Positions 28,556-62,796 of a stretch of DNA of 64,000 nt are shown here, piece after piece. Source of the DNA: Citricoccus zhacaiensis (GTDB taxonomy: Bacteria; Actinomycetota; Actinomycetes; Actinomycetales; Micrococcaceae). Positions within the stretch are counted from its first letter, which is position 1. Each line of letters opens with the position of its first letter. The translations under genes and the position numbers were made by a program. The stretch lies in contig NZ_BMLQ01000003.1 of the NCBI RefSeq assembly GCF_014645315.1, positions 54,063 to 118,062 of the forward strand, read 5' to 3'. The notes below the pieces were generated by a model. It searched no databases. It was given only the letters and a program-made list of their open reading frames with translations, and was not told the origin of the DNA.

Positions 28556-29653
28556 GTGCCTGAATCTGCCCAGGAGCTCACTGAGCATGCCCATCGCATC
28601 CTGGAGCTGGTGGGTTGTCTCAGCCGTCATTCCTACCAGCGGGTCGATGTGGGGGACCGCCTGCCCGAACTGGATGCAGCGCTTGCTCGGGCGGAGGCAG
28701 TGGTGCGCGGCCTGGCCAACCGGGCCAAGAGGGCGTCGAGCCCGGCGCCGTCCAGTGGGGTGATGGATCTCTTCACTCTGCTGGCCGATATTGGCGACGT
28801 CAGGAATCGCCTGCTCATACACCAGCTGGCTGGTCGGCATGAGGTGATTCACCGGATGAACGCGGCGCTGGGCAGGCTGCGATCAGTGGAGACGGTGCAG
28901 GAGTTCATCGACCAGGTGCCCGTGGAGGTCGTGAACCTGGGGTATGTCCGTTCCCTCTATTCTTCGGCGGAGAGCATGCAGTGGATCGCCCGGTCTGCGC
29001 ACTCGACTCAAGGCCCAGAGGAGAGCCTTCTTCTGCTGGAAGCGGGGCAGCAGGATCCTCTGCGAGATATCCACGACCTGTACGAGGCCGAGATGGTCCG
29101 GGAACGTCAGCCCATCTTGCGCCATGGAATCCGGAAGAGTCGACGGGTCCACCCGGAGATCATCAAGGTCACCGAATCTGATTCCTATGTGGCATCGCCC
29201 CTCATACTGGGCGGACAGGTCAGGGCCTTCGTCAGCGTGGACGTCAATGCGGAAAGCGGGACTGTCGATGCGTTCGACATGGAGCTGATGGGGCTGTTCA
29301 CCACCGGCGCCGCTATCGCGTTGGACCGGCTCGGGGGCCCACGTCACCTCAGCTCGGTGGTCGGTGCTGAGTGGGCTAACGGGGCCGGATCCGGCCGAGG
29401 AGATGGCATGCCCTCGGATCTGACCCGGCGCGAGCTGGAGATTCTCGGGTTGGTGGCTGAGGGCCTGTCCAATGCGGCCATTGCCCAGCGGCTCGTCATC
29501 AGCGAGGGGACCGCCAAGACGCATGTGAAGAACATCCTGCGCAAGCTGGGCGCCTCGAACCGCACCCAGGCGGCCGCCTTCCTGCGGCGGGCTAACCCCG
29601 CCGCGGAGGCAGAGGGTCTTCCTGGGGAGAGATACCCCTTTCGGGAGATGTGA
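28556..29653 (+). CDS. LuxR-type (GAF plus HTH) transcriptional regulator
   Basis: A 365-residue regulator. The N-terminal 100 residues are helical without a recognised domain. The middle (about 100-250) looks like a GAF sensor domain (ASPLILGGQVRAFVSVDVNA, ending in an FTTGAAIALDRL helix). The C-terminus (about 285-345) is a LuxR HTH: LTRRELEILGLVAEGLSNA, AIAQRLVISEGTAKTHVKN, ILRKLGASNRTQAAAF. The start is GTG 28556 behind GGGAGG. It lies directly upstream of the P450 operon in the same direction (50 bp), so it is probably its activator, with the GAF domain sensing the substrate. An inverted repeat lies in the 50-bp gap. Confidence 0.85.
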   Translation: MPESAQELTEHAHRILELVGCLSRHSYQRVDVGDRLPELDAALARAEAVVRGLANRAKRASSPAPSSGVMDLFTLLADIGDVRNRLLIHQLAGRHEVIHRMNAALGRLRSVETVQEFIDQVPVEVVNLGYVRSLYSSAESMQWIARSAHSTQGPEESLLLLEAGQQDPLRDIHDLYEAEMVRERQPILRHGIRKSRRVHPEIIKVTESDSYVASPLILGGQVRAFVSVDVNAESGTVDAFDMELMGLFTTGAAIALDRLGGPRHLSSVVGAEWANGAGSGRGDGMPSDLTRRELEILGLVAEGLSNAAIAQRLVISEGTAKTHVKNILRKLGASNRTQAAAFLRRANPAAEAEGLPGERYPFREM

Positions 29654-29669
29654 GCCGCATCACAGTAAA

Positions 29670-29695
29670 CCTAGATTGGGGGCACCCAACCTAGG
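29670..29695 (+). promoter_or_regulatory. Inverted repeat overlapping the ribosome site of the P450 gene
   Basis: CCTAGATTGGG (29670-29680) and CCCAACCTAGG (29685-29695) pair with a single mismatch around GGCA. The right arm ends inside the AGGAGG ribosome site (29693-29698), 8 bp before ATG 29704. It could be an operator for the LuxR protein or an RNA hairpin that hides the ribosome site. Confidence 0.5.
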
Positions 29696-29703
29696 AGGAA
29701 ACG

Positions 29704-31026
29704 ATGAGCGTCACCCAGGATTCCCCGGACACGTTGGTCCCCGACCACATCGCACGCCAGGTCGTCACGCCGGAGGGCCACCGCGATGACGAGGCCCTCT
29801 TCGAGGCGTACCGGTGGTTGCGTGACAACGCCCCGCTCGCCAAGGTCCACGTCGAGGGCTATGACCCTCTCTGGCTGCTCACCAAACACGCGGACATCAT
29901 GGAGGTCGAGCGGCAGCCGCAGATCTTCTCCAACGGCGGTCCGGAGATCGGCTCCCACAACCCCAATCTTGGCAGCCAGGCCGACGACGCCTTCCACCGG
30001 CAGCTCACCGGGGGCAGCCTGCGGGTGATCGACTCCCTCACCTACCTCGACCCGCCCGAGCACACCATGGTCCGGGACATCGCCACCGACTGGTTCCGTC
30101 CCGTCACCCTGAAGAAGTGGGAGGACGAGATCCGCGTCCTGGCCCGGGAGGCCATCGAAGCGCGGTTGCACCCCGGGACCAACGAGCTGGACTTCGTCAA
30201 GGAGTTCACGGTCTACTACCCCCTGCACGTCATCATGACCCTGTTCGGCGTCCCGGCGGAGGACGAGCCCCGCATGATGGCGCTGACCCAGGACTTCTTC
30301 GGCACCGCGGATCCGGACGCGCAGCGCGAGGACGTGGAGCCACTGTCTCCAGGGGCCGCGGCGGAGCAGTTCTCGGCGGCCATCCAGGACTTCTACGCCT
30401 ACTTCGACCGGCTGATCGAGGACCGCCGGGCCGAGCCGCGGGACGACCTCGCGTCCATCATCGCGAACGCGCGCACGGAGGACGGCGAGTACTTCGCCCG
30501 TAGCTACGCCTACGGTTGGTTCATCGCCATCGCCACCGCAGGCCATGACACGACGTCGAGCACCCTGGCCACCTGCCTTGAGGCGCTCGCACAGAACCCC
30601 GACCAGCTGGCCGCCGTACAGGCCGATCCCTCCCGGATCCCGGACCTGGTCAACGAGTCGCTGCGCTGGGCCTCGCCCGTCAAGCAGTTCACCCGGATGG
30701 CACTGGAGCCCTACGAGCTGCGGGGCCAGAAGATCGAGGCCGGCGATCGCCTGGTCACCCTCTACCAGTCGGCGAACCGGGATGAGGATATCTTCGAGGA
30801 CCCCTACGCGTTCCGCTACGACCGCAAGCCGAACAAGCACATCGCGTTCGGTTACGGCCCCCACATGTGCATCGGCCAGCACCTGGCCAAGATGGAGCTG
30901 CGGGTGATGCTTGAGGAGCTGCTGCCACGCATCACGTCCCTGCAGCTGACCGGGGAGCGCAAGGTCGTTCAGACCAACTTCGTGGGCGGGCTGAAGAACC
31001 GCCCGCTGGTCCTGGAGCTGTCATGA
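29704..31026 (+). CDS. Cytochrome P450, CYP108 (P450terp)-like
   Basis: A 440-residue soluble bacterial P450. The I-helix oxygen-binding motif is AGHDTTS (from residue 279), the ExxR is in NESLRWASP, and the haem Cys389 lies in [13 protein letters not shown]. Much of the sequence follows what I remember of Pseudomonas P450terp (alpha-terpineol hydroxylase): PDHIAR...[36 protein letters not shown] and a closing TNFVGG.KN. It would insert oxygen into an unactivated or allylic methyl of a terpenoid using the ferredoxin and reductase encoded next. The following four genes complete a terp-like operon. The reductase gene overlaps its stop by 4 nt. The substrate is inference from this recalled similarity. 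Confidence 0.85.
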
Positions 31027-32273
31027 GTCCGCGCAAGGTCATCGTGGTGGGGGCCGGCCACGCCGGAGGCACCTTCGTGGCGCTGCTGCGCCGGGAGGGC
31101 TTCGACGGGGAGATCGCGATGGTGGGCACGGAGGTCCACGCCCCGTACCACCGGCCGCCGCTGTCCAAGTCCTTCGGCGGGCCCAAGGACGGTGGGGACC
31201 GAGGTGCACCTGCGAAGTGGCTCTATGACCCGGCCTTCTACCAGGAGCAGGGGATCGATCTTCACCTGAGCGAGACCGTCACCTCCGTGGACCGGGGCGG
31301 CCGCTCGGTCACCCTGAGCGGTGGAGCCGTCCTCGACTATGACGTGCTCGTGTTGGCCACCGGCGCCGAACCCCGCAGCCTCGGTCTCCCGGGTGAGGGA
31401 CTGGAGGGTATCCACACCCTCCGGGACGTCGGCGACGCCGTGCGGCTGGACGAGGCCATCACCTCGGGTCGGCCGCTGGCGATCGTCGGCGGCGGCTATA
31501 TCGGCCTGGAGGTCGCCGCGGCGGCCAGGGCGCACGGCGTGGACGTGACCGTGATCGAACGCGAGGACCGCCTCCTCGCCAGGGTCGCGAGCCCGGCGCT
31601 CTCAGGGTTGCTGTCCGAGCACCACCAGGTGAGCGGCACCGCGATCCTCACCGGAGCGCAGACCGTCGGCTATGTGTGCGACGCCGGCCGGGTCGGCGGG
31701 GTGCGCCTGGCTGATGACACGGTCATCCCCTGCGGCACCGTCCTCGTCGGAGCCGGGGCCGTGCCCCGGCAGGCCCTCGCGGAGCAAGCCGGGCTGGAGT
31801 GCGGCAACGGCATCATGGTCGACGCGCGGTGCCGCACCTCCGACGAGTCGATCCTGGCGATCGGTGACGTCACCAACCGACCGGTGGACGGCTTGGAGAT
31901 GATGGACGGTCGCATGCGGGTGGAGAGCATCCCCAGCGCGGTCGACCAGGCCCGGCATGCCGTCGATGTCGTCCTGGGTCGGCCGGCCCAGGACCATGAG
32001 GTCCCGTGGTTCTGGTCCGACCAGTTCGACCTGAAGATCAAGATCGCCGGGATCGTCCACGGAGACTACGAGACGGTCCAGCGCGGGGATCCGGTGCGTG
32101 GTGGGTTCGCCCTCTACCACCTACGCGATGGTCGACTGGTCGCCGCGGAGGCCGTCAACGCACCGAAGGACTTCATGGTCGCCAAGCGCATGCTGTCCAC
32201 CGGGTGCCCCGTCGAGGCCGCGGCGCTCCGGGACCCGGACGCCGACCTGAGGGGCCTGGTCGCCGCCGCCTGA
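31023..32273 (+). CDS. FAD-dependent ferredoxin reductase (putidaredoxin/terpredoxin-reductase type)
   Basis: A 416-residue pyridine-nucleotide-disulfide-fold flavoprotein. It shows the FAD Rossmann motif [10 protein letters not shown] at the start, [11 protein letters not shown] (typical of P450-system reductases), [11 protein letters not shown], the NAD motif [14 protein letters not shown], and ILAIGDV near the FAD ribityl site, with a C-terminal dimer-type domain ([15 protein letters not shown]). It passes electrons from NADH to the [2Fe-2S] ferredoxin of the P450. It overlaps the P450 gene by 4 nt. The ferredoxin follows after 73 bp. Confidence 0.9.
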
Positions 32274-32346
32274 TCCGAATACCGGCGGTCGCCCGTCCTG
32301 CAGAAGTCAATCCTCGAGTCATCGAGATGCCCAGAAAGTGAATCCC

Positions 32347-32667
32347 ATGCCCACCATCACCTATGTCCTCCCCGACGGAACCGAACAGCAGATGGACGTC
32401 CCCTGCGGGCAGTCCGTGATGGACGGTTCAGTGCGCAACAACCTCCCCGGCATCGTGGCCGAGTGCGGCGGCAGCTGCTCCTGCGCTACCTGCCACGTCT
32501 TCCTGGAGCACGCCCCGGACGGGGCATTCGACGAACCCATGACGGAGGAGACGGACCTCGTGGAGTTCCTCGAGGACGCCGCACCGAACTCCCGGCTCTC
32601 GTGCCAGCTCATCGTCTCCGAGAACGCGGACGGCGCCCGCGTGCGCGTGTCCACAGCCAACGGCTGA
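32347..32667 (+). CDS. [2Fe-2S] ferredoxin, adrenodoxin/putidaredoxin type
   Basis: A 106-residue ferredoxin. Cluster ligands are Cys40, Cys46 and Cys49 (ECGGSCSCATCHV) and Cys86 (RLSCQL), the same spacing as putidaredoxin and terpredoxin. An additional Cys44 lies inside the loop. It shuttles electrons from the reductase to the P450. ATG 32347 is taken over the in-frame GTG three codons earlier, because the fold starts with MPTITYVLPDG. Confidence 0.92.
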   Translation: MPTITYVLPDGTEQQMDVPCGQSVMDGSVRNNLPGIVAECGGSCSCATCHVFLEHAPDGAFDEPMTEETDLVEFLEDAAPNSRLSCQLIVSENADGARVRVSTANG

Positions 32668-33850: not shown

Positions 33851-35320
33851 ATGACCACCGTCGACACCCGGCAGACTATCGACTACGACCGTCTCTTCCT
33901 GGGCGGTGAATGGACCGAGCCCACGACCGAAGACCGCATCCAGGTCCACTCCGCCACCACCCACGAGCTGGTGGGCAGCGTCCCGGAAGGCCGTGAGGGA
34001 GACATCGACGCCGCTGTCGCCGCCGCCCGCGCCGCCTTCGACGACCCGAGCGGCTGGGCGCACTTCACCCCGACGCAACGCGGAGAGGTGCTCGAGCGCT
34101 TCGCGAAGGCCCTGGAAGCCCGTGGCGCGGAGACCGCCCGGCGGGTGACCGTCCAGAACGGCATGCCCACCTGGCTGTCCCAGCAGTGGGAGCAGGGCTT
34201 TCCGCCCATGCTGGTGCGGTTCTTCGTCGACCTGGTGAAGCAGACGCAGGAAGAGATCCGCCCGGGCCTCCTGGGCAAGCAGACCATGGTCATCCGCAAG
34301 CCCATCGGCGTGGTGGGTCAGATCGTGCCGTGGAACGTCCCGCAGGCCATCACTTTCCTCGGCATGGCACCCGCCCTGGCGGCCGGTTGCACCGTCGTGC
34401 TCAAGCCCTCCCCGGAAACCGTCCTCGACGCCTTCATGCTCGCGGAGGCCGCCGAGGAAGCGGGGCTGCCGGCCGGCGTCGTGAACATCATCCCCGGTGG
34501 CCGTGAGGTGGGTGCCTACCTGGTGTCCCATCCCGGGGTGGACAAGGTGTCCTTCACCGGATCCACTGCTGCTGGCCGCAAGGTCGCGGCGGCGTGCGGT
34601 GAGCTGTTGCGCCCCGTCACCCTGGAACTGGGTGGCAAGTCCGCAGCCGTGATCCTGGACGATGCGGACCTGGACTCCCAGTTGGAGGACTTCTTCGGCA
34701 ACACCATGATCAACAACGGGCAGGTCTGCTGGACGTCCACCCGCATCCTCGTGCCCTCGTCACGGTACGACGAGATCACCGGGACCCTGGCGGACCTCTA
34801 CTCCGGGCTGGCGGTGGGGGACCCCCTGGATCCGGCCACGAAGGTCGGCCCCCTGGTCTCCGAGCGACAGCGTGAACGTGTGGAGGGCTACATTGCCGTC
34901 GGCAAGCAGGAGGCCCGTCTGCTGGTGGGCGGCGGCCGGCCGCACGGCATCGACCAGGGTTGGTTCGTGGAGCCCACGGTGTTCGCCGACGTCGATCCGA
35001 AAGCGAGGATCGCCCAAGAGGAGATCTTCGGCCCGGTGCTCTCGATCATCCGCTACGAGGACGAGCAGCAGGCCACCCAGATCGCCAACGACTCGGAGTA
35101 CGGGCTGGGCGGATCCGTGTGGACTGCCGATTCGGACCGCGGAGAGGCGTTCGCCCGCACGGTCCGCAGCGGTACCTTCGGCGTCAACGGCTATGCCAAC
35201 GATCCTGTCGCCCCGTTCGGCGGTGTAAAGTCCAGCGGCCTCGGCCGCGAGTTGGGTCCTGAGGGCCTGGCTGCGTTCCAGGAGATCAAGACGATCTACC
35301 TGGACCGTCCGAACGCCTGA
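33851..35320 (+). CDS. NAD(P)-dependent aldehyde dehydrogenase
   Basis: A 489-residue ALDH. Visible are the cofactor segment IVPWNVPQAITF, FTGSTAAGRKV, the general-base Glu in LELGGKSAAVIL, the catalytic Cys293 in NNGQVCWTSTR, and QEEIFGPVLSII. It would oxidise the aldehyde from the preceding enzyme to the carboxylate that CoA ligases then activate. A good AAGGAG precedes it. It is the last gene of the P450 operon, followed by a hairpin. Confidence 0.92.
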   Translation: MTTVDTRQTIDYDRLFLGGEWTEPTTEDRIQVHSATTHELVGSVPEGREGDIDAAVAAARAAFDDPSGWAHFTPTQRGEVLERFAKALEARGAETARRVTVQNGMPTWLSQQWEQGFPPMLVRFFVDLVKQTQEEIRPGLLGKQTMVIRKPIGVVGQIVPWNVPQAITFLGMAPALAAGCTVVLKPSPETVLDAFMLAEAAEEAGLPAGVVNIIPGGREVGAYLVSHPGVDKVSFTGSTAAGRKVAAACGELLRPVTLELGGKSAAVILDDADLDSQLEDFFGNTMINNGQVCWTSTRILVPSSRYDEITGTLADLYSGLAVGDPLDPATKVGPLVSERQRERVEGYIAVGKQEARLLVGGGRPHGIDQGWFVEPTVFADVDPKARIAQEEIFGPVLSIIRYEDEQQATQIANDSEYGLGGSVWTADSDRGEAFARTVRSGTFGVNGYANDPVAPFGGVKSSGLGRELGPEGLAAFQEIKTIYLDRPNA

Positions 35321-36166: not shown

Positions 36167-37351
<1,185 letters not shown>

Positions 37352-37430: not shown

Positions 37431-37464
37431 ATCAGACCAAATGTCTCTCACAATGGTTCCATTA
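37431..37464. promoter_or_regulatory. Degenerate GntR-type site and AATGG-TT-CCATT palindrome
   Basis: TATCAGACCAAAT (37431-37443) keeps one full half (CAGACCA) of the GGTC-N-GACC pattern. AATGGTTCCATT (37453-37464) has perfect AATGG/CCATT arms like site 2 at 49179, but with a 2-bp centre. Both lie between the divergent thiolase and ligase genes. Confidence 0.35.
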
Positions 37465-37530
37465 ATTCTTCGGACCTCTTACTATGAGGTGCATCACACC
37501 CCCTGCCTGTCTCGTCTCCCGGAGGTCCAG

Positions 37531-49193: not shown

Positions 49194-49314
49194 AAGCGCA
49201 AGTGAAGGCCGTGGGACGGCCTGTCCGACCATGCGAGTCGAAATGTCCATGGGGTGGCGAGGGTACAAGTGGGCCGCCGCCCCTTGCTCAAGGTGGCCGG
49301 TCTTGTAAGGTGTG

Positions 49315-49328
49315 AATGGTCAGACCGA
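49315..49328. promoter_or_regulatory. GntR/FadR-type operator (site 3)
   Basis: AATGGTCAGACCGA, with a perfect GGTC-A-GACC core (49318-49326), ends 11 bp before ATG 49339 and touches the ribosome site, so a bound protein would block the start of the oxidoreductase operon. Confidence 0.6.
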
Positions 49329-49338
49329 AAGGGGCAAG

Positions 49339-51194: not shown

Positions 51195-51280
51195 AACTAG
51201 GATGTCAGTGAGCCCAGTCACAGATGTGGCCGCGGGCATGGCCGAAGCAGGACGAGAGTAATGGCCCGGAAGGGGACCTG

Positions 51281-53067: not shown

Positions 53068-53844
53068 CTATAGGCCGACGTTGATCCCCGTGCGCTCGTC
53101 CACCTCGAGGAGAGCCTCCGCGTAGGAATGGACGTGACGGGTCATGCGACGCACGGCGGCGTCCCGGTCCTGTTCGCGGATCCCGCGGGTGACAGACCGG
53201 TGGGCCCGGACCGTGGTGGCCCGCACCGCGTCGTCCACGAATCCCTGGTTGTCCGTCGCCTCGTAGATCGCGCGGGATAACGCGCGCATCATTCCCGAGA
53301 GCAGCTCATTGTGGCTGGCTTCGGCGACGGCCATGTGCCAGTCAACGTTGATCTGGAGGAATTCGGCGAGCGAGGCGCCCTCTGCCTGCTCGATCTGGTC
53401 GTTGAGCTCATTCAGGCGCTTGAGGTCCTCGTCGGTGCGGTACAGGGCGGCGAGGCCGGCGCACTGCGGCTCGATGGCCTCGCGGGTCTCCAGCAGGTCG
53501 TCCAGCCGGATCTGCCGTCCGCGAATGAGCAATTCCACGGAGTTGGCCACGGAGTCGCTGTCCGGCCGGCGCACGAAGGCTCCACCCGATCTGCCGGTGC
53601 GGATGGTCACCAGGCCCTGAACCTCCAGGATGCGCAATGCCTCCCGGACGGTGGTGCGGCTCATGGCGGTCTGGGCGACCAGCTCGCGCTCGGGTGGCAG
53701 TGAGGTTCCCTCGGGGAAGTCGCCACGGAGGATCCGCTCCCGCAGGTCGTCCGCCAGGACGTCGGAGGCCTTGGGCACCTGCAGTGGCGACAGGGACGCA
53801 GAGGGCGCCTCCGGGCTCGGCGTGGTGCCGTTCGATGTGGCCAT
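53068..53844 (-). CDS. GntR-family regulator, FadR/FCD subfamily
   Basis: A 258-residue regulator with an N-terminal winged HTH (about residues 25-95): VLADDLRERILRGDFPEGTSLP, the PPERELVAQTAMSRTTVREAL recognition region (cut PERELVAQ, then SRTTVREALRILE), GLV.IRTGRSGGAFV, and a C-terminal all-helical FCD domain (about 100-245) with the metal-type His/Asp positions (DWHMAVAEASHNELL, RAHRSVTRGI). FCD-type regulators bind TGGTC-N-GACCA-like operators and respond to acyl-CoAs or organic acids. AGGAGG precedes ATG 53844. The perfect GGTC-A-GACC at 53990 lies between it and the divergent acyl-CoA dehydrogenase, and four similar sites occur at other promoters of the region, so it is the probable local repressor. 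Confidence 0.88.
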   Translation of the reverse strand: MATSNGTTPSPEAPSASLSPLQVPKASDVLADDLRERILRGDFPEGTSLPPERELVAQTAMSRTTVREALRILEVQGLVTIRTGRSGGAFVRRPDSDSVANSVELLIRGRQIRLDDLLETREAIEPQCAGLAALYRTDEDLKRLNELNDQIEQAEGASLAEFLQINVDWHMAVAEASHNELLSGMMRALSRAIYEATDNQGFVDDAVRATTVRAHRSVTRGIREQDRDAAVRRMTRHVHSYAEALLEVDERTGINVGL

Positions 53845-54000: not shown

Positions 54001-54079
54001 TGGTATGGTTTCGAGCATCGGATGCAGCGACCGCATCCAGCCCCTCACGGGGCGCCCCTTCATCTCAGGAGGCCTCCGC

Positions 54080-55246
54080 ATGGACTTCGAACTGACGGAA
54101 GACCAGCAGACCATCAAGGACGCCGTGGCAGAGCTCGCCGCGCGCTTCGACCACCAGTACTGGATGGACAAGGACCTCAACAAGGAGTTCCCCACCGAGT
54201 TCTACGATGCCTTCGCCGAAGGCGGCTGGCTCGGGCTGACCATTCCCGAGGAGTTCGGCGGCCACGGCATGGGCATTACCGAGGCCTCCCTGCTGCTGCA
54301 GGAGGTGGCGGCCTCCGGTGCCGGCATGAACGGCGCCAGCTCCATGCACCTGTCCATCTTCGGCATGCATCCCGTGGTCGTCCACGGCACCGAGAAGATG
54401 AAGCAGGAGAACCTGCCCCGCATCGCCGCCGGTGACCTGCACGTGTGCTTCGGCGTCACCGAGCCCGGTGCCGGCCTGGACACCTCCCAGATCACCACCT
54501 TCGCCCGCAAGGACGGTTCCGACTACGTGGTCAACGGCCGCAAGGTCTGGATCTCCAAGGCCGTGGAATCCGAGAAGATCCTGCTGCTGACCCGGACCAC
54601 CAAGGCCGAGGACGTGCAGAAGAAGACGGACGGCATGACGCTGTTCTTCACCGACCTGGACCGGGCTCACATCGATGTCCAGCCCATCAAGAAGATGGGC
54701 CGCAACGCGGTGACCTCCAACGAGCTGTTCATCGACGACCTGCGGATCCCCGAGGAGGACCGCATCGGGGAGGAGGGCAAGGGCTTCACCTACCTGCTGG
54801 ACGGCCTCAACCCCGAGCGCATGCTGGTGGCCGCCGAGGCGCTGGGCATCGGCTATGCCGCCCTGAAGGCGGCCACCCAGTACGGCAACGACCGGGTGGT
54901 CTTCAAGCGCCCGATCGGTAAGAACCAGGGCATCCAGTTCCCCCTGGCCGATTCACTGGCCCGCCTCGAGGCGGCCGAGCTGATGCTGCGCAAGGCCACG
55001 TGGCTCTACGATCACGGCAAGCAGTGCGGCAAGGAGGCGAACATGGCCAAGTACCTGTGCGCCGATGCCGGCTTCGACGCGGCCGACCGGGCCCTGCAGA
55101 CGCACGGCGGCATGGGCTACTCCGAGGAGTACCCCGTGGCCCGTTTCTTCCGCGAGGCCCGGCTGACCCGGATCGCCCCCATCAGCCAGGAGATGATCCT
55201 CAACTACCTGGGCTCGCACGTCCTGGGCATGCCGAGGAGCTACTGA
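54080..55246 (+). CDS. Acyl-CoA dehydrogenase
   Basis: A 388-residue canonical ACAD: MDFELTEDQQTIKD, GLTIPEEFGGHGMGITEA, VCFGVTEPGAGLDTSQITTFA (key part GVTEPGAGLDTS), WISKAVESEKILLLTRTT, NPERMLVAAEALGIGYAAL and HGGMGYSEEYPVARFFREAR (key part HGGMGYSEEYPVAR). It introduces the 2,3 double bond of an acyl-CoA. ATG 54080 has AGGAGG. It starts a seven- to eight-gene operon (55248-62796) with spacings of 1-90 bp. The substrate is probably a branched or cyclic acyl-CoA, judged by context only. Confidence 0.9.
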   Translation: MDFELTEDQQTIKDAVAELAARFDHQYWMDKDLNKEFPTEFYDAFAEGGWLGLTIPEEFGGHGMGITEASLLLQEVAASGAGMNGASSMHLSIFGMHPVVVHGTEKMKQENLPRIAAGDLHVCFGVTEPGAGLDTSQITTFARKDGSDYVVNGRKVWISKAVESEKILLLTRTTKAEDVQKKTDGMTLFFTDLDRAHIDVQPIKKMGRNAVTSNELFIDDLRIPEEDRIGEEGKGFTYLLDGLNPERMLVAAEALGIGYAALKAATQYGNDRVVFKRPIGKNQGIQFPLADSLARLEAAELMLRKATWLYDHGKQCGKEANMAKYLCADAGFDAADRALQTHGGMGYSEEYPVARFFREARLTRIAPISQEMILNYLGSHVLGMPRSY

Positions 55247-55247
55247 G

Positions 55248-56027
55248 ATGACCGTGGAACAACGCACCTACCCTGCCGTCTTCTCCCTGCAGGGCCGTTC
55301 GGCCCTCGTGACCGGGGCCGGTGCCGGCATCGGCGAGGCCGTGGCCCGCGCGCTGGCTGCGGCCGGCGCCGCGGTGCTCGTCACCGACCTTCAGGAGGAG
55401 GCCGCCCGCGCGGTGGCCGAGTCCATCGTCGCCGGTGGCGGTACCGCCGCCCATGCCGCCCTGGACGTGCGCAACGCCGAACAGGCCGCCACTGCGGCGC
55501 GCCAGGCCGCGGAGCTCAACGGGGGAACCCTGAACATCCTCATCAACAACGCGGGGGCCATCGCCCCGGCGATGTTCCCGAAGATGACCGCTGAGCAGTT
55601 TGAATTCGTGGTCGGCGTCCACCTGGTGGGTTCCTTCACCGTCAGTCACGCGGCCCAGGAATTCCTGCCCGACGACGGCACGGGCCGCATCCTCAACGTC
55701 ACCTCGGCCGCGGGGCTGACCGGCACGATCGGCCAGGTGAACTACGGCTCCGCCAAGGCCGGCATCATCGGCCTCACCAAGTCCCTGGCCAAGGAACTGG
55801 CCCGCCGCCAGATCACGGTCAACGCGCTCGCCCCGCTGGCCGCCACGGCCATGACGGAGACCGTGCGGACCAATGAGAAACTGTCCGCGAAGCAGCTGGC
55901 CCGGATCGCCATGGGGCGTTGGGCCACCCCGGAGGAGATCGCCCCCAGCTTCGTGTTCTTCGCATCCGATGCGGCCAGCTACATCACTGGCCAGGTCTTG
56001 CCGGTCGACGGCGGAACGGTGGTCTGA
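55248..56027 (+). CDS. SDR-family oxidoreductase
   Basis: A 259-residue SDR of the FabG/3-hydroxyacyl-CoA-dehydrogenase type: ALVTGAGAGIGEAVARAL, LINNAGAIAPAMF, TSAAGLTGTIGQVNYGSAK (catalytic Ser, Tyr, Lys), and SYITGQVLPVDGG. It starts 1 nt after the acyl-CoA dehydrogenase stop, so translation is coupled. Probably oxidises a 3-hydroxyacyl-CoA ahead of the thiolase that follows. Confidence 0.86.
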   Translation: MTVEQRTYPAVFSLQGRSALVTGAGAGIGEAVARALAAAGAAVLVTDLQEEAARAVAESIVAGGGTAAHAALDVRNAEQAATAARQAAELNGGTLNILINNAGAIAPAMFPKMTAEQFEFVVGVHLVGSFTVSHAAQEFLPDDGTGRILNVTSAAGLTGTIGQVNYGSAKAGIIGLTKSLAKELARRQITVNALAPLAATAMTETVRTNEKLSAKQLARIAMGRWATPEEIAPSFVFFASDAASYITGQVLPVDGGTVV

Positions 56028-57248: not shown

Positions 57249-58577
57249 ATGGCCCGCATCGATTTCAGCGCTCTGCTGGCGGAGGCGTCCGCCAGCGGTG
57301 CCGTACCGGGCGTGTGGTGGGGCCAGGGGGCCGGGGAACCGATGTCCTTGGTGGACGCCCTCCTGGACGCCCTGGCGGATCCGGACTCCGCGCTGGACCG
57401 GGTCCGCGCCTTCAGTGGCCTGAGCTTGAACGAGCGCCTGGGTCGGGATCTGCCGGCAGGCCTCGAGATGGAGTCCTACGGCGCCCTTGGGCAACTGCGC
57501 AAGGTCGCGGCCGCCGGCCGCCTGGAGGTCGTCCCGGCCAACTATTCGGCGTTGCCCCGGCTCTTCGCGCAGGGAAGGCTCCCGTCCGACGTCGGGATGG
57601 TCCAGGTCTCGCCGCCGAACCGGAACGGCGAGGTGTCCCTCGGTGTGGCCGTCGATTACTTCGGCGACGCGATCGGCTCCACGCGGATGCTGATCGCGGA
57701 GATCAATCACGCCATGCCCTTCCTCGAGGATTCGCCCCGGCTGCCGCTCTCCGCGTTCGCCGCCACCGTGGACGTGGACCGGCCCCTGGCCGAGATGGGT
57801 CACCGCGCCCCGGACGAGGTCGATCTGGCCATCGCGGGTCATGTGGCCGGGCTGATCGAGGACGGCTCCACCCTGCAGATCGGCGTCGGCACGCTGCCGA
57901 ATGCCGTGCTGCGGGCGCTGTCCGGGCACCGGGATCTCGGCTTCCACTCGGGCATGGTCACCGACGGCGTCCTCGACCTCATCGAGTCCGGCGTGGCCAC
58001 CGGTGCCCGCAAGGAGATCGACACCGGGGTGGCCGTGACCGGTTCCGCCCTCGGTTCCGCCGGCCTCTACCGCCGGCTCGGCGAGAAGCAGGGCCGGCGG
58101 CAGGACGGCGGGCTCGACGTGTCGTTCCGTCCGGCCAGCTACACCCACGACCCGGCCGTGCTGTCCCGACTCGGCAGTCTCGTCTCGATCAACTCCGCCC
58201 TGGAGGTCGATCTGTCCGGCCAGGTCGGATCCGAACGCGTCGGCGGACGCTTCCTCGGTGCGATCGGCGGCCAGGCCGACTTCAGCCGGGCCGCGGCCCT
58301 GACCGGGGCCCGGTCCATCATCGCGTTGCGGTCCACCAGCCGCGGCGTCTCCACCATCCGCCCCGAGCTCGACGGCGGCTTGGTCGCCACCGCGCGCGCC
58401 GACGTCGACGTGGTGGTCACCGAGCACGGCGCCGCCGTGCTGACCGGGCTGACGGAGCGGGCCCGCGCAAGAGCCCTCATCGGCATCGCGGCGGAGGAAC
58501 ACCGCGATGGCCTGACCCGCGCAGGCTGCATCCAGACGACCGAGAAGAACCAGACGACCCAGGAGGTACCGGCATGA
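57249..58577 (+). CDS. Acetyl-CoA hydrolase/transferase (4-hydroxybutyrate/butyrate CoA-transferase-like)
   Basis: A 442-residue member of the CoA-transferase family I-type/acetyl-CoA hydrolase group: QVSPPNRNGEVSLGVAVDYF, LQIGVGTLPNAVLRAL, the catalytic Glu region SINSALEVDLSGQVGSERV, and GAIGGQADFSRAAALT. It would move CoA between an acyl-CoA and acetate or a similar acid, or remove it. In the pathway it could free or recharge an acid such as an acetoacetate- or hydroxyacid-type product. ATG 57249 lies 5 bp past the thiolase gene. The lyase gene overlaps its end by 4 nt. Confidence 0.82.
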   Translation: MARIDFSALLAEASASGAVPGVWWGQGAGEPMSLVDALLDALADPDSALDRVRAFSGLSLNERLGRDLPAGLEMESYGALGQLRKVAAAGRLEVVPANYSALPRLFAQGRLPSDVGMVQVSPPNRNGEVSLGVAVDYFGDAIGSTRMLIAEINHAMPFLEDSPRLPLSAFAATVDVDRPLAEMGHRAPDEVDLAIAGHVAGLIEDGSTLQIGVGTLPNAVLRALSGHRDLGFHSGMVTDGVLDLIESGVATGARKEIDTGVAVTGSALGSAGLYRRLGEKQGRRQDGGLDVSFRPASYTHDPAVLSRLGSLVSINSALEVDLSGQVGSERVGGRFLGAIGGQADFSRAAALTGARSIIALRSTSRGVSTIRPELDGGLVATARADVDVVVTEHGAAVLTGLTERARARALIGIAAEEHRDGLTRAGCIQTTEKNQTTQEVPA

Positions 58578-59521
58578 CTGAGACGACCACCAACGCCACC
58601 CCCGGTGAGGACCGCACCGTGGTGATCCGCGAGGTCGGCCCGCGGGACGGCTTCCAGAACGAACCGGAGACCATCGCCACCGCGGACAAGATCCGGCTGA
58701 TCAATGAGCTCGGACAGACCGGTCTCACCCGGATCGAGGTGGCCAGCTTCGTCCGCCCGGACGTCATCCCGCAGCTCTCCGATGGGGTCGAGGTGCTGAA
58801 GGGCATCGACCTGCCCGAGTCGGTGGAACGCATGGTGCTGATCCCCAACACCAAAGGCCTGGACAACGCCCTGGCCATCCGCGAACTCTTCGATGCCTGC
58901 ACCCTGTTCGTGAGTGCGTCGGAATCCCACAACAAGGCCAACATCAACCGCACGGTCCGCGAGACCATGGAGGATGTGAAGACCATGGGTGGAAGGATCG
59001 CCGCCGAGGGCATCCAATACGGTGCGGTCATCGCCACCTCCTTCGGCTGCCCCTACGAAGGACACGTCCCCATGGACCGGGTCCTGGACCTGGCCGAGGA
59101 GTTCGCCGAGTCAGGCGCCACCGAACTGGGTTTCGGGGACACCACGGGCATGGCCAACCCCGCCTACGTGCACCGCTTCTTCACCGAGGCGGCCCGCCGG
59201 CTGCCCGGCGTCGAGCTGACCGCGCACTTCCACAACACCCGTGGCCAGGGGCTGGCCAACGCCTACGCGGCGCTGGAGGCCGGCTGCCGGTCCTTCGAAT
59301 CCAGCTTCGGAGAGCTCGGAGGCTGCCCTGTGCCCAAGGGCTCCACCGGCAACATCGCCTCCGAAGACCTCATCAGCATGTTCCACGAGATGGGCGTGGA
59401 GACCGGCATCGACCTGGACGCCCTCATCACTGCGGCCCGCCACGCCCAGGAGGTGCTGGGCCGCAAGCTGACCAGCCACTCGATCGTGGCCGGTCCCGTC
59501 CTCTGGGAGTCCGCCGCCTGA
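58574..59521 (+). CDS. Hydroxymethylglutaryl-CoA lyase-like protein
   Basis: A 315-residue TIM-barrel lyase of the HMGL family: VGPRDGFQNEPETI, GLTRIEVASFVRPDVIPQL (key part IEVASFVRPD), SASESHNKANIN, SFGCPYEGHVP, FGDTTGMANP, HFHNTRGQGLANAYAAL and FGELGGCPVPKGSTGNIASED (key part LGGCPVPKGSTGN). All active-site motifs (metal Asp in GPRDG, His-x-His in HFHN, catalytic Cys in GGCP) are present. It would cleave HMG-CoA to acetoacetate and acetyl-CoA, the end of leucine or isoprenoid degradation. AGGAGG precedes ATG 58574 (4-nt overlap with the transferase gene). Confidence 0.87.
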   Translation: MTETTTNATPGEDRTVVIREVGPRDGFQNEPETIATADKIRLINELGQTGLTRIEVASFVRPDVIPQLSDGVEVLKGIDLPESVERMVLIPNTKGLDNALAIRELFDACTLFVSASESHNKANINRTVRETMEDVKTMGGRIAAEGIQYGAVIATSFGCPYEGHVPMDRVLDLAEEFAESGATELGFGDTTGMANPAYVHRFFTEAARRLPGVELTAHFHNTRGQGLANAYAALEAGCRSFESSFGELGGCPVPKGSTGNIASEDLISMFHEMGVETGIDLDALITAARHAQEVLGRKLTSHSIVAGPVLWESAA

Positions 59522-59609: not shown

Positions 59610-60371
59610 ATGACCGAAGAACGCACCGCACTGATCACCGGAGGGGCCCAGGGCATCGGCAAGGGCATCACCACATCCCTGGCCGAGGCCGGGTTCTCGG
59701 TGGTCATCGCCGACCTCAATCTGGAGGTCGCCACCGCCACCGCCGAGGAACTGACCGGCCGCGGGCTGAAGGCCTCCGCCGTACAGATGAACGTGACCGA
59801 CTCCGCCTCCGTTGCCGAGGCGGTCCAGCAGGCCGAGGCCCAGTCCGGCCCCATCAGTGTGCTGGTCAACAACGCCGGGTGGGATGACTTCATGCCCTTC
59901 CTGGACACCACCGAGGAATTCTGGGACAAGATCGTGGACCTCAACTTCAAGGGCCACTTGCGCACCGTCAAAGCCATCGTGCCCGGCATGATCGAGCGCG
60001 GCTACGGCCGCGTCATCAACATCGGCTCCGACGCCGGCCGCGTCGGTTCCTCGCTCGAGGCCGTGTACTCCGGGGCCAAGGGCGGCGTCATCGCCTTCAC
60101 CAAGACCCTCGCCCGGGAGATCGCCACGAAGGGCGTCACCGCCAATGTGGTCTGCCCCGGCCCCACGGACACCCCCGCCTTGCGCAAGTTCGCGGACGGT
60201 GCCGGCGATGACGCGGACAAGGTCATCAACGGGATGAAGCGGGGCGTGCCGATGAAGCGCCTCGGCACCCCCGAGGACATCGGTCCGGCCGTGGCCTTCT
60301 TCGCCTCCGAGGGCGCGGGATTCGTCACCGGCCAGACCCTGTCCGTCTCCGGCGGACTGACGATGGCCTGA
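59610..60371 (+). CDS. SDR, 2-hydroxycyclohexanecarboxyl-CoA dehydrogenase (BadH)-like
   Basis: A 253-residue SDR. Besides GGAQGIGKGI and YSGAKGGVIAFTKTLARE, it has the NNAGWDDFMPFLDT and GSDAGRVGSSLEAVYSGAK stretches and CPGPTDTP, which I recall as characteristic of BadH, the enzyme that oxidises 2-hydroxycyclohexane-1-carboxyl-CoA to the 2-keto form. The next gene is a BadI-like ring hydrolase, the next step of that pathway, which supports the call. It lies 88 bp after the lyase gene. Function is by recalled similarity, not by search. Confidence 0.8.
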   Translation: MTEERTALITGGAQGIGKGITTSLAEAGFSVVIADLNLEVATATAEELTGRGLKASAVQMNVTDSASVAEAVQQAEAQSGPISVLVNNAGWDDFMPFLDTTEEFWDKIVDLNFKGHLRTVKAIVPGMIERGYGRVINIGSDAGRVGSSLEAVYSGAKGGVIAFTKTLAREIATKGVTANVVCPGPTDTPALRKFADGAGDDADKVINGMKRGVPMKRLGTPEDIGPAVAFFASEGAGFVTGQTLSVSGGLTMA

Positions 60372-60380
60372 GCTGTGGAC

Positions 60381-61220
60381 ATGGCCGAGACGACCACGCC
60401 GGAAACCTGGAACGTCTCCGGGAACTACGAGGACATCCGCTACGAGACCACCCCCGATGGCATCGCCAAGATCACCATCGACCGCCCCGAGGTGCACAAC
60501 GCCTTCCGGCCCCAGACGCTGATCGAGGTGTCCGATGCTCTCGTGACCGCCCGCGAGGACGAACGCGTGGGCGTCATCATCCTCACCGGTGCCGGTGACC
60601 AGGCGTTCTGTTCGGGCGGGGACCAGCGTGTGCGCGGCGACAGCGGCTATCAGACTGCTCCGGGCACGACGGGACGGTTCCACGTGACGGACCTGCACGT
60701 GCAGATGCGCCGGTGTCCCAAACCGATCGTGGCCATGGTCGCCGGCTGGGCCATCGGCGGCGGCCACATCTTGCAGATGGTCTGCGACCTGTCCATCGCC
60801 GCGGACAACGCGCGCTTCGGACAGGTCGGTCCGCGCGTCGGCTCCTTCGACGGCGGCTTCGGCGCCTCCCTGCTGACTGAACTGGTGGGGGCGCGCAAGG
60901 CCAAGGAGATCTGGTTCCTGTGCCGCCAGTACACGGCCGAGCAGGCGCTGGAGATGGGCCTTGTCAACACCGTGGTGCCGCTGGAGCAGCTCGAGCAGGA
61001 GACACTGTCCTGGTGCCGCGAGATGCTGGCCTTGTCCCCGTACGCGCTACGCCTCATGAAGGCCTCCTTCCATGCGGCCGAAGACGGCTTCGCGGGCATC
61101 CAGCAGCTGGCCCATGACGCGAACCTGCTGTTCTACGGCACGGAAGAGGCCCAGGAGGGCCGCGAGGCGTTCAAGGCCAAACGGGAACCCGACTTCTCGA
61201 GGTTCCCCCGCCGGGCCTGA
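60381..61220 (+). CDS. 2-ketocyclohexanecarboxyl-CoA hydrolase (BadI)-like crotonase
   Basis: A 279-residue crotonase of the BadI/MenB branch: [20 protein letters not shown] (key part [13 protein letters not shown]), [60 protein letters not shown] (key part [10 protein letters not shown]) and [14 protein letters not shown] near the end. BadI hydrolyses 2-ketocyclohexane-1-carboxyl-CoA to pimelyl-CoA, opening the ring. MenB, its relative, closes a ring, but here the neighbours favour ring opening. It is placed 9 bp after the BadH-like gene with no clear ribosome site, so translation is probably coupled. Confidence 0.82.
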
Positions 61221-61284
61221 ACCGGGATCCCGGTGCTTCCCCTGCCACTGTCCCAGACCGTTCACCACCTACGTGAGGACCACC

Positions 61285-62796
61285 ATGCACGCCCTCGGAC
61301 TGGCCACCTGGTTCCGCCGCCGCGCCGAAAGGGATGGATCCCGAGATGCGATCTCCTTCGCCGGCCAGACCCTGACCTTCGCCCAAGCTCAGGCCGAGAT
61401 CGAGGCCTTTGCCGACATGCTGGCCGCCTCCGGGGTCGAACCCGGGGACCGGGTCGCCTATGTGGGGTTCAACCACAGCCGCTTCCTCATCGCGCTGTTC
61501 GCCACCGCGCGCCTCGGGGCCATCTTCGTGCCGCTGAATTTCCGGTGCACCGGCCACGAGCTGGCCTACTTCGTCCGGGACAGCGGCGCACAGTTGCTGA
61601 TCGCCGACGAAGCGCACTCGAGCCCGGTGGACGAGGTCCGCGCCGACCTCGACGTTCGGACCTACCTGCGGTTCGGGGAGGGTGCGGAGGAATGGCAGGG
61701 CATCGAGGAGCTGCTGGCCCGGGGACATCCGCACGTCCAGGAGGCTCCCGTGGACGCGGAGTCTCCGGGCGTGATCGTCTACACCTCCGGCACCACCGGC
61801 AACCCCAAGGGTGCCGTCCTCTCGCACCGGAACCTGTGGACGAACAACGTCAACTGGATGCTCTCGGTGGGCTACGGCTCTGACCATGTGGCTCTGACCT
61901 CAGCACCCTTGTTCCATTCCGGCGGCATGTGCGTGATGACCCTGCCGATGCTCATGGCCGGTGCCCACGTCATCATCCACGAGAAGTTCGACCCCGGTCT
62001 GTTGCTCGATGACGTGGAACGGTACCGGGTGACCTCGCTGTTCCTGGTCCCGGCCATGATGCAGGGCATCAGCCGGCACGAGCGCTTCGACTCGGCCGAC
62101 CTGTCCAGCATCCGCATCGTCGTGGCCGGCGCCGCTCCCGTGCCGGAATCCCTGCTGCGGCTCTATGGTTCGCGGGGCATTCCCGTGAGCCAGTGCTGGG
62201 GCCAGACGGAGGTGGCCACCGGTGCCACCTTCCTCGGAACCGAGGAGGCCCTCGACAAGCTGGGCTCCTGCGGGACGGCGGGCTTCCTCAACGAGGTCCG
62301 GCTTGTCGACTTCAGCGGCGAGCCGATCACCGAGCCGGGAGTCCGCGGCGAGCTTTGCGTGCGTGGGGACACCGTCACCCCCGGGTACTGGAACCTGCCG
62401 GAGGCGACGGCGGCCGCGCAGGGCGGAGAGGGATGGTTCCGTACCGGGGACGTCGCCTACCAGGACGAGGACGGCTACTTCTACATCGTGGACCGCCTGA
62501 AGGACATGATCATCAGCGGTGGGGAGAACGTCTATTCCGCCGAGGTCGAGGACGCGATCTACGGTCACCCGGCCGTGTCCGAGGTCGCCGTGATCGGCGC
62601 CGCCGATGAACGCTGGGGCGAACGCGTGGTCGCCATCGTGGCTCTCAAGGACGGCGAGAAACTCGACCTCGAGGGCCTCCGCGAGTTCGCCGGTAAGCGG
62701 CTGGCCCGCTACAAGCTGCCCCTCGAACTGAGACTGGTGGACGAGCTGCCTCGCAACACCACCGGGAAGGTCCTCAAGCACGAACTGCGCGCTTGA
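61285..62796 (+). CDS. Acyl-CoA ligase (AMP-forming), FadD/cyclohexanecarboxylate-ligase-like
   Basis: A 503-residue ANL ligase, shorter than the two 556-residue paralogues: P-loop IVYTSGTTGNPKGAVLSHR, CWGQTEVATGA (A5), EGWFRTGDVAYQDEDGYFYI (key part GWFRTGDVAY), RLKDMIISGGENVYSAEVED and a C-terminal Lys in PRNTTGKVLKHEL. It activates a carboxylic acid with ATP and CoA. ATG 61285 follows GAGGA. It is the last gene of the plus-strand operon that contains BadH/BadI-like genes, so it is a candidate ligase for the cyclic acid. Confidence 0.85.
   Translation: MHALGLATWFRRRAERDGSRDAISFAGQTLTFAQAQAEIEAFADMLAASGVEPGDRVAYVGFNHSRFLIALFATARLGAIFVPLNFRCTGHELAYFVRDSGAQLLIADEAHSSPVDEVRADLDVRTYLRFGEGAEEWQGIEELLARGHPHVQEAPVDAESPGVIVYTSGTTGNPKGAVLSHRNLWTNNVNWMLSVGYGSDHVALTSAPLFHSGGMCVMTLPMLMAGAHVIIHEKFDPGLLLDDVERYRVTSLFLVPAMMQGISRHERFDSADLSSIRIVVAGAAPVPESLLRLYGSRGIPVSQCWGQTEVATGATFLGTEEALDKLGSCGTAGFLNEVRLVDFSGEPITEPGVRGELCVRGDTVTPGYWNLPEATAAAQGGEGWFRTGDVAYQDEDGYFYIVDRLKDMIISGGENVYSAEVEDAIYGHPAVSEVAVIGAADERWGERVVAIVALKDGEKLDLEGLREFAGKRLARYKLPLELRLVDELPRNTTGKVLKHELRA

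What the first reader, a model, noticed from the sequence alone, without database searches (positions are those of the whole stretch)
28556..62796. Contiguous region that reads as a complete route for a cyclic terpenoid such as alpha-terpineol
The P450/reductase/ferredoxin/alcohol dehydrogenase/aldehyde dehydrogenase set matches the gene content of the Pseudomonas terp operon. It is followed in the same region by CoA ligases, a crotonase, a BadH-like dehydrogenase, a BadI-like ring hydrolase, thiolases, a CoA transferase and an HMG-CoA-lyase-like gene. On paper this works: terpineol methyl to carboxylate (oleuropeic acid), CoA ester with the ring double bond already alpha,beta, hydration, oxidation, ring cleavage to a 3-substituted pimelyl-CoA, one beta-oxidation round to a glutaryl-type 4-hydroxyacyl-CoA, then removal of the tertiary alcohol. 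I know of no described gene set that joins all these parts; the substrate is not proven.
Basis: partly seen in the sequence, partly recalled or inferred. Interest (0 to 1): 0.85.

Follow-up and report, generated by a model that had tools for sequence, protein, structure and literature searches.

The report
Aerobic cyclic monoterpene breakdown gene island
An actinobacterium carries a large, probably borrowed block of genes that reads as a route for eating cyclic plant oils such as terpineol or limonene; the two halves of the route are known from other bacteria, but their combination here and one odd kinase-containing step appear undescribed.

Summary
The gene content is real. Window 28556-62796 holds a P450/ferredoxin-reductase/ferredoxin/ADH/ALDH operon and a GntR-flanked operon ACAD-SDR-thiolase-CoA-transferase-HMG-CoA-lyase-BadH-BadI/MenB, part of an island that runs about 62 kb past the window. 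The block recurs near the same P450 type in Frankia, Protofrankia, Kribbella, Saccharopolyspora, Nocardioides and on a Rhodococcus ruber plasmid. In 394 class genomes all 7 with this P450 also have the cluster-type lyase and a conserved second BadI. Best reading: oxygen-dependent degradation of p-menthane monoterpenoids by methyl-to-carboxylate oxidation, hydrolytic ring cleavage, one beta-oxidation round and HMG-CoA-lyase-type cleavage. That alpha-terpineol is the substrate is not shown; limonene fits about as well. Corrections: the window's 'BadI' scores as MenB; the conserved ring hydrolase lies outside the window; a second, 83%-identical P450 lies beside aromatic dioxygenase genes. 'No described gene set' is too strong: mrc and lrc operons describe the lower half. 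Unexpected: a conserved ACAD11/LvaA-type kinase paired with a DUF7064 protein.

The parts
28556..29653 (+). LuxR/GerE-type regulator upstream of the P450 operon
   Evidence: Pfam GerE 69.3 bits; 33-34% matches just upstream of the P450 in Kribbella, Saccharopolyspora and Nocardioides
29704..31026 (+). cytochrome P450, CYP108-like (ring-methyl hydroxylase, inferred)
   Evidence: PDB P450tol 666 bits, P450terp 468 bits; 83% identical paralogue at G000:C10:8593-9915
31023..32273 (+). NAD(H)-ferredoxin reductase; start overlaps P450 stop
   Evidence: AndAa/HcaD-type reductase models, 297.5 and 296.1 bits, below their cut-offs
32338..32667 (+). [2Fe-2S] ferredoxin
   Evidence: TIGR02007 41.5 bits; 92% identical paralogue on C10
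32712..33815 (+). zinc/NDMA-type alcohol dehydrogenase (ATG at 32712)
   Evidence: TIGR03989 224 bits, below cut-off 440
33851..35320 (+). aldehyde dehydrogenase
   Evidence: BADH and StyD models 404-413 bits, below their cut-offs
36167..37351 (-). beta-ketothiolase (BktB-like)
   Evidence: PRK09051 451.6 bits; TIGR01930 413.4, over cut-off 240.55; start
37441..39201 (+). acyl-CoA ligase, best model cyclohexanecarboxylate-CoA ligase
   Evidence: TIGR03208 419.1 bits, below cut-off 792.3
40053..41042 (-). zinc-binding oxidoreductase, PIG3 type (QOR1)
   Evidence: TIGR02824 193 bits; start
41093..41668 (-). TetR regulator
   Evidence: NF050111 104 bits
41698..42477 (-). SDR1
   Evidence: PRK08213 239 bits
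42476..43654 (+). APH-family kinase (APH1), distant relative of the ACAD11 kinase domain
   Evidence: Pfam APH 101 bits; PDB 9o56 65 bits, ACAD11 49.5 bits; relatives of 50% or more in 3 of 394 class genomes, all three with the cluster-type lyase
43830..45092 (+). acyl-CoA dehydrogenase ACAD1 (canonical catalytic Glu)
   Evidence: Pfam ACAD domains; alignment
45089..45964 (-). SDR2
   Evidence: PRK07576 169 bits
45961..47490 (-). zinc-binding oxidoreductase QOR2 (ORF; true start internal)
   Evidence: TIGR02824 184 bits over residues 171-496
47726..49135 (-). PucR-type regulator
   Evidence: Pfam HTH_30, GGDEF_2
49312..50319 (+). zinc-binding oxidoreductase QOR3
   Evidence: TIGR02824 181.6 bits; next to the crotonase in several cluster genomes
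50365..51144 (+). crotonase (candidate BadK-like hydratase)
   Evidence: EchA19 model 169 bits, below cut-off; 63-71% in cluster genomes
51224..52951 (+). acyl-CoA ligase, AliA-like
   Evidence: TIGR03208 408.2 bits, below cut-off
53068..53844 (-). GntR/FadR-type regulator, divergent to next operon
   Evidence: PdhR model 114 bits; 67-74% in cluster genomes
54005..55246 (+). acyl-CoA dehydrogenase ACAD2; no Glu/Asp at the MCAD position, a Glu in the IVD-type position (read by eye, positions recalled)
   Evidence: segments printed; 77-82% in cluster genomes
55248..56027 (+). SDR3 (3-hydroxyacyl-CoA dehydrogenase role inferred)
   Evidence: FabG-type model 231 bits
56032..57243 (+). thiolase
   Evidence: TIGR01930 432.7 bits, over cut-off 240.55; start
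57249..58577 (+). acetyl-CoA hydrolase/transferase family CoA-transferase
   Evidence: Pfam AcetylCoA_hyd_C; TIGR03948 173 bits, below cut-off
58574..59521 (+). HMG-CoA-lyase family protein, cluster subfamily
   Evidence: PRK05692 321.9 bits, over cut-off 246; 1ydo 257 bits with conserved motifs; 73-79% in 7 other class genomes versus at most 47% in the rest
59610..60371 (+). BadH-like SDR
   Evidence: TIGR03206 286.4 bits, cut-off 431.2
60375..61220 (+). BadI/MenB-family crotonase (scores as MenB)
   Evidence: R. ruber plasmid homolog 76.9%
61285..62796 (+). FadD-type acyl-CoA ligase
   Evidence: PRK06187 494.9 bits, over cut-off 476; start

Best explanation
The region is the first part of a roughly 98-kb catabolic island for oxygen-dependent growth on p-menthane-type cyclic monoterpenoids. 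Inferred order: the P450 and its redox partners hydroxylate the ring methyl; ADH and ALDH make the cyclohexene carboxylic acid; an AliA-like ligase makes the CoA ester; a crotonase hydrates the ring double bond; the BadH-like SDR makes the 2-oxo compound; a BadI-family hydrolase (most likely the conserved one at C3:158856-159656, outside the window) opens the ring to a branched pimeloyl-CoA. One beta-oxidation round gives a 3-substituted glutaryl-CoA. This is turned into a 3-hydroxy-3-alkylglutaryl-CoA and split by the HMG-CoA-lyase-family enzyme into acetyl-CoA and a branched 3-oxoacid, which CoA-transferase and thiolase turn into isobutyryl- or methacrylyl-CoA for the valine-type operon downstream. 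For alpha-terpineol the glutaryl-CoA would be a 4-hydroxyacyl-CoA, and a conserved ACAD11/LvaA-type kinase could start moving that tertiary hydroxyl. Shown: gene families, synteny, co-occurrence. Inferred: every reaction and the substrate class. Not decided: which monoterpenoid.
For: Gene families. Synteny of the P450 operon, QOR3-crotonase(-ligase) and ACAD2-SDR3-thiolase-CoAT-HMGL-BadH, in whole or large part, in F. canadensis, Ca. F. californiensis, Protofrankia, Kribbella, Saccharopolyspora, Nocardioides and the R. ruber plasmid. In 394 class genomes, own included: P450 (E<=1e-140) in 7, cluster-type lyase (73% or more) in 8, second BadI (78% or more) in 8; all 7 P450 genomes have the other two. 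The cluster lyase is far from ordinary lyases (at most 47%) yet keeps the conserved motifs. Own genome has a separate actinobacterial MenB (504.8 vs cut-off 378), so neither BadI-family crotonase is needed for menaquinone. Valine-type enzymes: 3-hydroxyisobutyryl-CoA hydrolase and 3-hydroxyisobutyrate dehydrogenase over cut-offs at C3:173883-175974. Precedent for the same chemistry proposed for the anaerobic lrc operon (PMC12583861 passages).
Against: No substrate, transcript or enzyme data. Equivalog cut-offs for BadH, BadI and AliA are not met. P450s of the same kind also lie beside aromatic dioxygenases, in R. ruber and on this genome's own C10 contig. The P450 tree does not unite the ring-cleavage-linked P450s (6 changes for 14 rows; shuffled mean 9.0, as low in 17 of 500). 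The co-occurrence comes from two families (f1, f25), so few independent events; identity thresholds were set after seeing the gap. G324 has the lyase without a P450 or BadI2 match, and G351 BadI2 alone. In G152 the three lie on different contigs.
Confidence: 0.72

Rival explanations
1. The route is specifically for limonene/perillyl compounds (or phellandrene), not alpha-terpineol: P450 makes perillyl alcohol, the end product is methacrylyl-CoA or isobutyryl-CoA, and no tertiary alcohol has to be removed.
For: Both described ring-cleavage gene sets that I found are for limonene/phellandrene. CYP108N12 and N14 are reported to make perillyl alcohol from limonene (review passages). Valine-type operon in the island.
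Against: An ACAD11/LvaA-type kinase is conserved in the cluster and has no obvious role for limonene.
Confidence: 0.35
2. alpha-Terpineol (or another hydroxylated p-menthene) is the main substrate.
For: P450terp homology; CYP108N14 reported to make 7-hydroxyterpineol; 3-(2-hydroxypropan-2-yl)glutaryl-CoA would be a 4-hydroxyacyl-CoA, the substrate type of ACAD11/LvaA kinases (PMC12440821, PMC11342911 passages), and such a kinase is conserved.
Against: P450tol is a closer relative than P450terp. None of the seven island ACADs read has the HCMR string of ACAD11/LvaC.
Confidence: 0.3
3. The P450 operon serves p-cymene/toluene-type aromatics and merely sits beside an unrelated ring-cleavage cluster.
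For: Closest solved structure is P450tol. A paralogous operon (82-92% protein identity) on C10 lies beside extradiol and Rieske dioxygenase genes. In R. ruber the nearest P450 homolog (70.6%) is followed by ring-hydroxylating dioxygenase genes.
Against: No aromatic dioxygenase among the window ORFs scanned, which start at 24.8 kb. P450 and lyase lie within about 30 kb in 6 of the 8 lyase genomes; in G152 they are on different contigs and G324 has no P450 match.
Confidence: 0.12
4. The cluster degrades unsubstituted or simple cyclohexane carboxylates (naphthenic acids).
For: AliA-like ligases and BadH/BadI-like genes.
Against: Cyclohexanecarboxylate would not need an HMG-CoA-lyase-type step or the P450/ADH/ALDH operon (established chemistry); both recur in the cluster genomes.
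Confidence: 0.08

Closest known systems
Pseudomonas terp operon (P450terp)
   Same: P450, ferredoxin, ferredoxin reductase, alcohol and aldehyde dehydrogenases together; P450 homologous over its whole length. Gene content of terp is from the finding and recall, not read.
   Different: P450 is closer to P450tol; the terp operon as recalled has no ring-cleavage genes attached.
CYP108N12/CYP108N14 of Rhodococcus globerulus and P450tol
   Same: P450tol 666 bits; ring-methyl hydroxylation of p-cymene, limonene and, for N14, alpha-terpineol reported (review passages).
   Different: The N12 and N14 sequences were not compared here; that P450tol belongs with CYP108N is recalled; no ring-cleavage cluster was seen described with them.
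mrc genes of Castellaniella defragrans 65Phen
   Same: Hydratase, BadH- and BadI-like ring cleavage of perillyl-CoA on a monoterpene island; a CoA-transferase and a thiolase are also listed on it (passages).
   Different: Oxygen-independent limonene dehydrogenase instead of a P450; the only lyase in the passages read is a 'citrate lyase', no HMG-CoA lyase.
lrc operon of Syntrophobacteraceae LiM6
   Same: BadI-like hydrolase, two thiolases, CoA-transferase and cleavage of a 3-hydroxy-3-alkylglutaryl-CoA (passages).
   Different: Anaerobic, started by a glycyl radical enzyme; LrcC is placed in the HMG-CoA synthase superfamily in the text, here it is an HMG-CoA lyase family protein.
LvaA/LvaC and ACAD10/11 4-hydroxyacyl-CoA pathway
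   Same: APH2 kinase at C3:122588-123664 aligns over most of its length with the ACAD11 kinase domain, Asp and Asn of the catalytic loop kept.
   Different: Partner gene is a DUF7064 protein, not an LvaC-type dehydrogenase.

Membership tests
Pseudomonas terp-type operon | CYP108-type P450 with ferredoxin, ferredoxin reductase, ADH and ALDH in one transcription direction | tested here: met
   Five genes, same strand, 29704-35320; P450terp 468 bits
Pseudomonas terp-type operon | hydroxylates the ring methyl of alpha-terpineol | not testable with these tools
   no assay
BadI (TIGR03210) | score over 467.6 bits | tested here: not met
   window protein 273.5; C3:158856-159656 335.4; no match over cut-off in own genome (3 matches) or in the 14 controls
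MenB (TIGR01929 / PRK07396) | score over 342.7 / 380 bits | tested here: met
   window protein 391.3 / 448.2. By sequence a MenB, but by place, and with a separate MenB on C5 (504.8 vs 378), probably not the menaquinone enzyme
BadH (TIGR03206) | score over 431.2 bits | tested here: not met
   286.4, best of all models for this protein
AliA cyclohexanecarboxylate-CoA ligase (TIGR03208) | score over 792.3 bits | tested here: not met
   419.1 and 408.2
HMG-CoA lyase (PRK05692) | score over 246 bits and conserved catalytic motifs | tested here: met
   321.9 bits; GPRDG, HxH and GGCP..G(S/A)(S/T)GN segments aligned with 1ydo (motif roles recalled)
LvaC/ACAD11 dehydrogenase (for ACAD1 43830-45092) | catalytic Asp in place of Glu, and Arg/HCMR phosphate-binding helix | tested here: not met
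   Glu at the catalytic column and no HCMR string in ACAD1; residues as described in PMC12440821 passages. ACAD11 itself was not in the printed alignment, so the mapping is indirect
LvaA/ACAD11 hydroxyacyl-CoA kinase (for APH2 C3:122588-123664) | full-length similarity and catalytic Asp/Asn | tested here: met
   9o56 180 bits, 3dxp 142 bits, ACAD11 112 bits versus about 24 bits for macrolide kinases; activity not tested
LvaA/ACAD11 hydroxyacyl-CoA kinase (for APH1 42476-43654) | same | tested here: inconclusive
   9o56 65 bits, ACAD11 49.5 bits, aminoglycoside kinases 22-23 bits
mrc/lrc-type monoterpene ring cleavage | hydratase, BadH- and BadI-family genes clustered with thiolase and CoA-transferase | tested here: met
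   gene lists of the two papers seen in passages; no Mrc or Lrc sequences compared

The most novel reading that the evidence does not exclude
The actinobacterial cluster is a complete aerobic route for alpha-terpineol-type alcohols in which an ACAD11/LvaA-type kinase phosphorylates the tertiary 4-hydroxyl of the branched glutaryl-CoA and a DUF7064 protein, not an LvaC-type dehydrogenase, eliminates the phosphate, so that hydration puts the hydroxyl at C3 and the cluster-specific lyase can cut. Kinase plus DUF7064 would be a new two-protein way to remove tertiary alcohols in terpenoid breakdown.
Probability: 0.22. Interest if true: 0.8.

Novelty: new variant of a known kind. Interest (0 to 1): 0.58.

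Why it matters
Aerobic bacterial breakdown of cyclic monoterpenes past the carboxylic acid has little gene-level description in what I could search, although plants release these compounds in very large amounts. Here one syntenic gene set, found across several actinobacterial genera including a named Rhodococcus ruber plasmid, links P450 methyl oxidation to hydrolytic ring opening and a lyase step, and makes each step testable. The kinase-DUF7064 pair gives a first handle on a protein family for which the library searched held no paper.

Tried and rejected
LvaA/LvaC pair at 42476-45092: rejected as an LvaC, because ACAD1 keeps the canonical Glu and has no HCMR string. Six further ACADs of the island lack HCMR too; ACAD3 (C3:153427-154620) does have an Asp at the catalytic place.

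P450 tree as a guide to substrate: 84 rows, of which 58 were in no label group; ring-cleavage-linked P450s are more clustered than most shuffles but not one clade, so it does not decide.

Structure of DUF7064: the AlphaFold model from five sequences had mean pLDDT 35, so no fold search was run.

Window BadI as the ring hydrolase: put behind the conserved second one, because the window type was found only in R. ruber and Saccharopolyspora among the cluster stretches laid out (stretches are partial).

General APH-DUF7064 pairing: one search listed 83 DUF7064 matches in 54 of 394 genomes. I examined 42 of the 83, chosen for diversity, not at random: 26 of the 30 strongest matches, most of them from one genus, were left out, and the 4 of those 30 that I did examine had no kinase near. 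13 of 42 have an APH kinase within 1.5 kb and 29 do not; 6 of the 13 lie in genomes that carry the lyase cluster, two of them next to the APH2 relatives themselves. Control: 2 APH genes in 318 kb of fetched sequence that I chose, not drawn at random. So pairing holds for part of the family only.

Full report
What is there. The window is C3:54063-118062 of a 3.69-Mb, 23-contig genome. Window 28556-35320 is a LuxR gene followed by P450, ferredoxin reductase, ferredoxin, ADH and ALDH on the same strand. Window 35.4-53.8 kb holds a thiolase, two AliA-like ligases, zinc oxidoreductases, SDRs, an APH-family kinase, an acyl-CoA dehydrogenase, a crotonase and TetR, PucR and GntR regulators. Window 54005-62796 is one closely spaced same-strand row: ACAD2, SDR3, thiolase, CoA-transferase, HMG-CoA lyase, BadH-like SDR, BadI/MenB-family crotonase, ligase.

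It is larger than the finding. Beyond the window the catabolic genes go on to about C3:181000: crotonases, a CaiB-type CoA-transferase, an APH kinase (APH2, C3:122588-123664) followed by a DUF7064 protein, and MaoC proteins (Pfam), a second BadI-family crotonase (BadI2, C3:158856-159656), ETF, and a valine-type set with 3-hydroxyisobutyryl-CoA hydrolase (442 vs cut-off 274) and 3-hydroxyisobutyrate dehydrogenase (349 vs 291.6). The ORFs there were called by codon-position GC only; many were not searched against any library and some names are by similarity to window genes or by eye.

Is it chance? No. A scan of the genome collection for the P450 found 239 relatives and kept the best 80. In 5 of these 80 loci three or more genes of the ACAD2-SDR3-thiolase-CoAT-HMGL-BadH block lie within 10 kb (L021, L022, L024, L025, L086), and in L012 two at the edge. 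By the wider label, 14 of 80 are ring-cleavage-linked, 4 aromatic-linked, 3 both and 59 neither; all loci are cut at 10 kb or at contig ends. Wider stretches show most of the set in F. canadensis, Ca. F. californiensis, Protofrankia, Kribbella, Saccharopolyspora, Nocardioides sp. Root140 and on Rhodococcus ruber MSA14 plasmid pmega_1 (NZ_CP145320.1).

Co-occurrence. In 394 genomes of the class, own included: P450 at E<=1e-140 in 7; lyase at 73% or more in 8, all other listed matches at most 47%; BadI2 at 78% or more in 8. All 7 P450 genomes are in both other sets; G324 has only the lyase and G351 only BadI2. They belong to two families (G351 to a third), so this is few independent events. The five other genomes of the window's family in the sample have none of the three at these thresholds, which suggests horizontal gain here.

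How it most likely works. The steps are given in the best explanation. [quoted passage not shown] An HMG-CoA lyase leaves a free 3-oxoacid, which explains the CoA-transferase beside it (established enzymology, recalled). A cyclohexanecarboxylate without a para substituent would need no such lyase. A possible objection is that the lyase serves leucine breakdown: own genome has this as its only lyase match at E<=1e-60. Against that, next to the methylcrotonyl-CoA-carboxylase-like gene at 24802-27033 lies a CitE/RipC-like gene (144 bits, below the RipC cut-off), a kind reported to act as HMG-CoA lyase in mycobacteria (recalled, not read). It is not excluded that the cluster lyase serves both.

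Which substrate. The P450 is nearest to P450tol and next to P450terp among solved structures. A review states that CYP108N12 hydroxylates p-cymene, limonene and p-xylene at a methyl group and that CYP108N14 also takes alpha-terpineol (PMC11279926 passages). I did not have those two sequences. The same genome has a second operon on C10, proteins 82-92% identical except the LuxR gene at 49%, beside LigB-type extradiol and Rieske dioxygenase genes, so one P450 type may serve both aromatic and, by context, alicyclic p-menthanes. The substrate class is likely; the compound is open.

BadI, BadH and AliA equivalog cut-offs are not met; the window BadI passes MenB cut-offs. The conserved hydrolase is BadI2 (73-85% in the cluster stretches), nearer to BadI (335 bits) but also under the cut-off. 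The genome's MenB is on C5. P450s linked to ring cleavage are not one clade. The window's kinase-ACAD pair is not an LvaA/LvaC pair by the residues I could read.

The odd part. APH2 matches hydroxyacyl-CoA kinases of the ACAD11 type. Of 12 genomes or records searched, own included, seven others have relatives at 60-64%, three Frankia/Protofrankia genomes at 49-51%, and G324 at most 44%. It is next to a DUF7064 gene in own genome, in Kribbella, Nocardioides, F. canadensis, G056 and G152 and in Streptomyces humicola L016; the weaker relatives in G260 and G300 are next to a DUF7064 match too. In R. ruber it is on the same plasmid but 9 kb away, where two other kinase/DUF7064 pairs also lie. Outside these, see the count in Tried and rejected. 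The pairing is real for part of the family; its reaction is a guess.

Novelty. Searches that found no description of this gene set: (open-licence library only; the CYP108N12, CYP108N14 and terp papers themselves I did not read). Upper and lower halves are each known; their union in actinobacteria with an HMG-CoA lyase and a kinase appears undescribed in what I could search. I file it as a new variant of a known kind.

Papers, what I saw: PMC4109377 outline with abstract and passages; PMC12583861, PMC11889516, PMC11342911, PMC12440821, PMC4097962, PMC11279926 passages; PMC13348398 whole text.

Noticed in passing
G000:C3:140508-144163 and 148626-152439 (first set L170:2446-6101): Two sets of 2-hydroxyacyl-CoA dehydratase/benzoyl-CoA-reductase-like subunits with activase beside oxygen-dependent catabolic genes (first set by profile; second by similarity in reading only); similar sets on the R. 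ruber plasmid, in Saccharopolyspora and Nocardioides. Such enzymes are normally oxygen-sensitive (recalled).
   Followed up: partly
G000:C10:4274-24830 (L214, L215): Second LuxR-P450-FdR-Fdx-ADH-ALDH operon, P450 83% identical to the window's, with extradiol and Rieske dioxygenase genes in the next 15 kb: probable p-cymene/p-cumate route.
   Followed up: yes
NZ_CP145320.1 178337-180480 and 256462-258684: Two APH-kinase genes each beside a DUF7065/DUF7064 gene, one pair overlapping by 4 bases.
   Followed up: partly
window 24802-28393: Acyl-CoA carboxylase alpha subunit of methylcrotonyl type, MaoC hydratase and CitE/RipC-like lyase in a row: reads as a leucine-type operon with a CitE-type lyase.
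   Followed up: partly
window 55710-55786, - strand: ARAGORN calls a tRNA-Ala (ggc) inside the SDR3 coding sequence on the other strand; possibly a false call.
   Followed up: no
window 39187-40052: Stretch without a clear gene; the minus-strand ORF 39187-40452 has only a weak NUDIX match.
   Followed up: no
window 40053-49135: TetR, QOR1, SDR1, APH1, ACAD1, QOR2, PucR module recurs in Saccharopolyspora (C6) and Nocardioides (C16), and in part near a P450 in Patulibacter L080 and Rhodococcoides L048; its role is open.
   Followed up: partly
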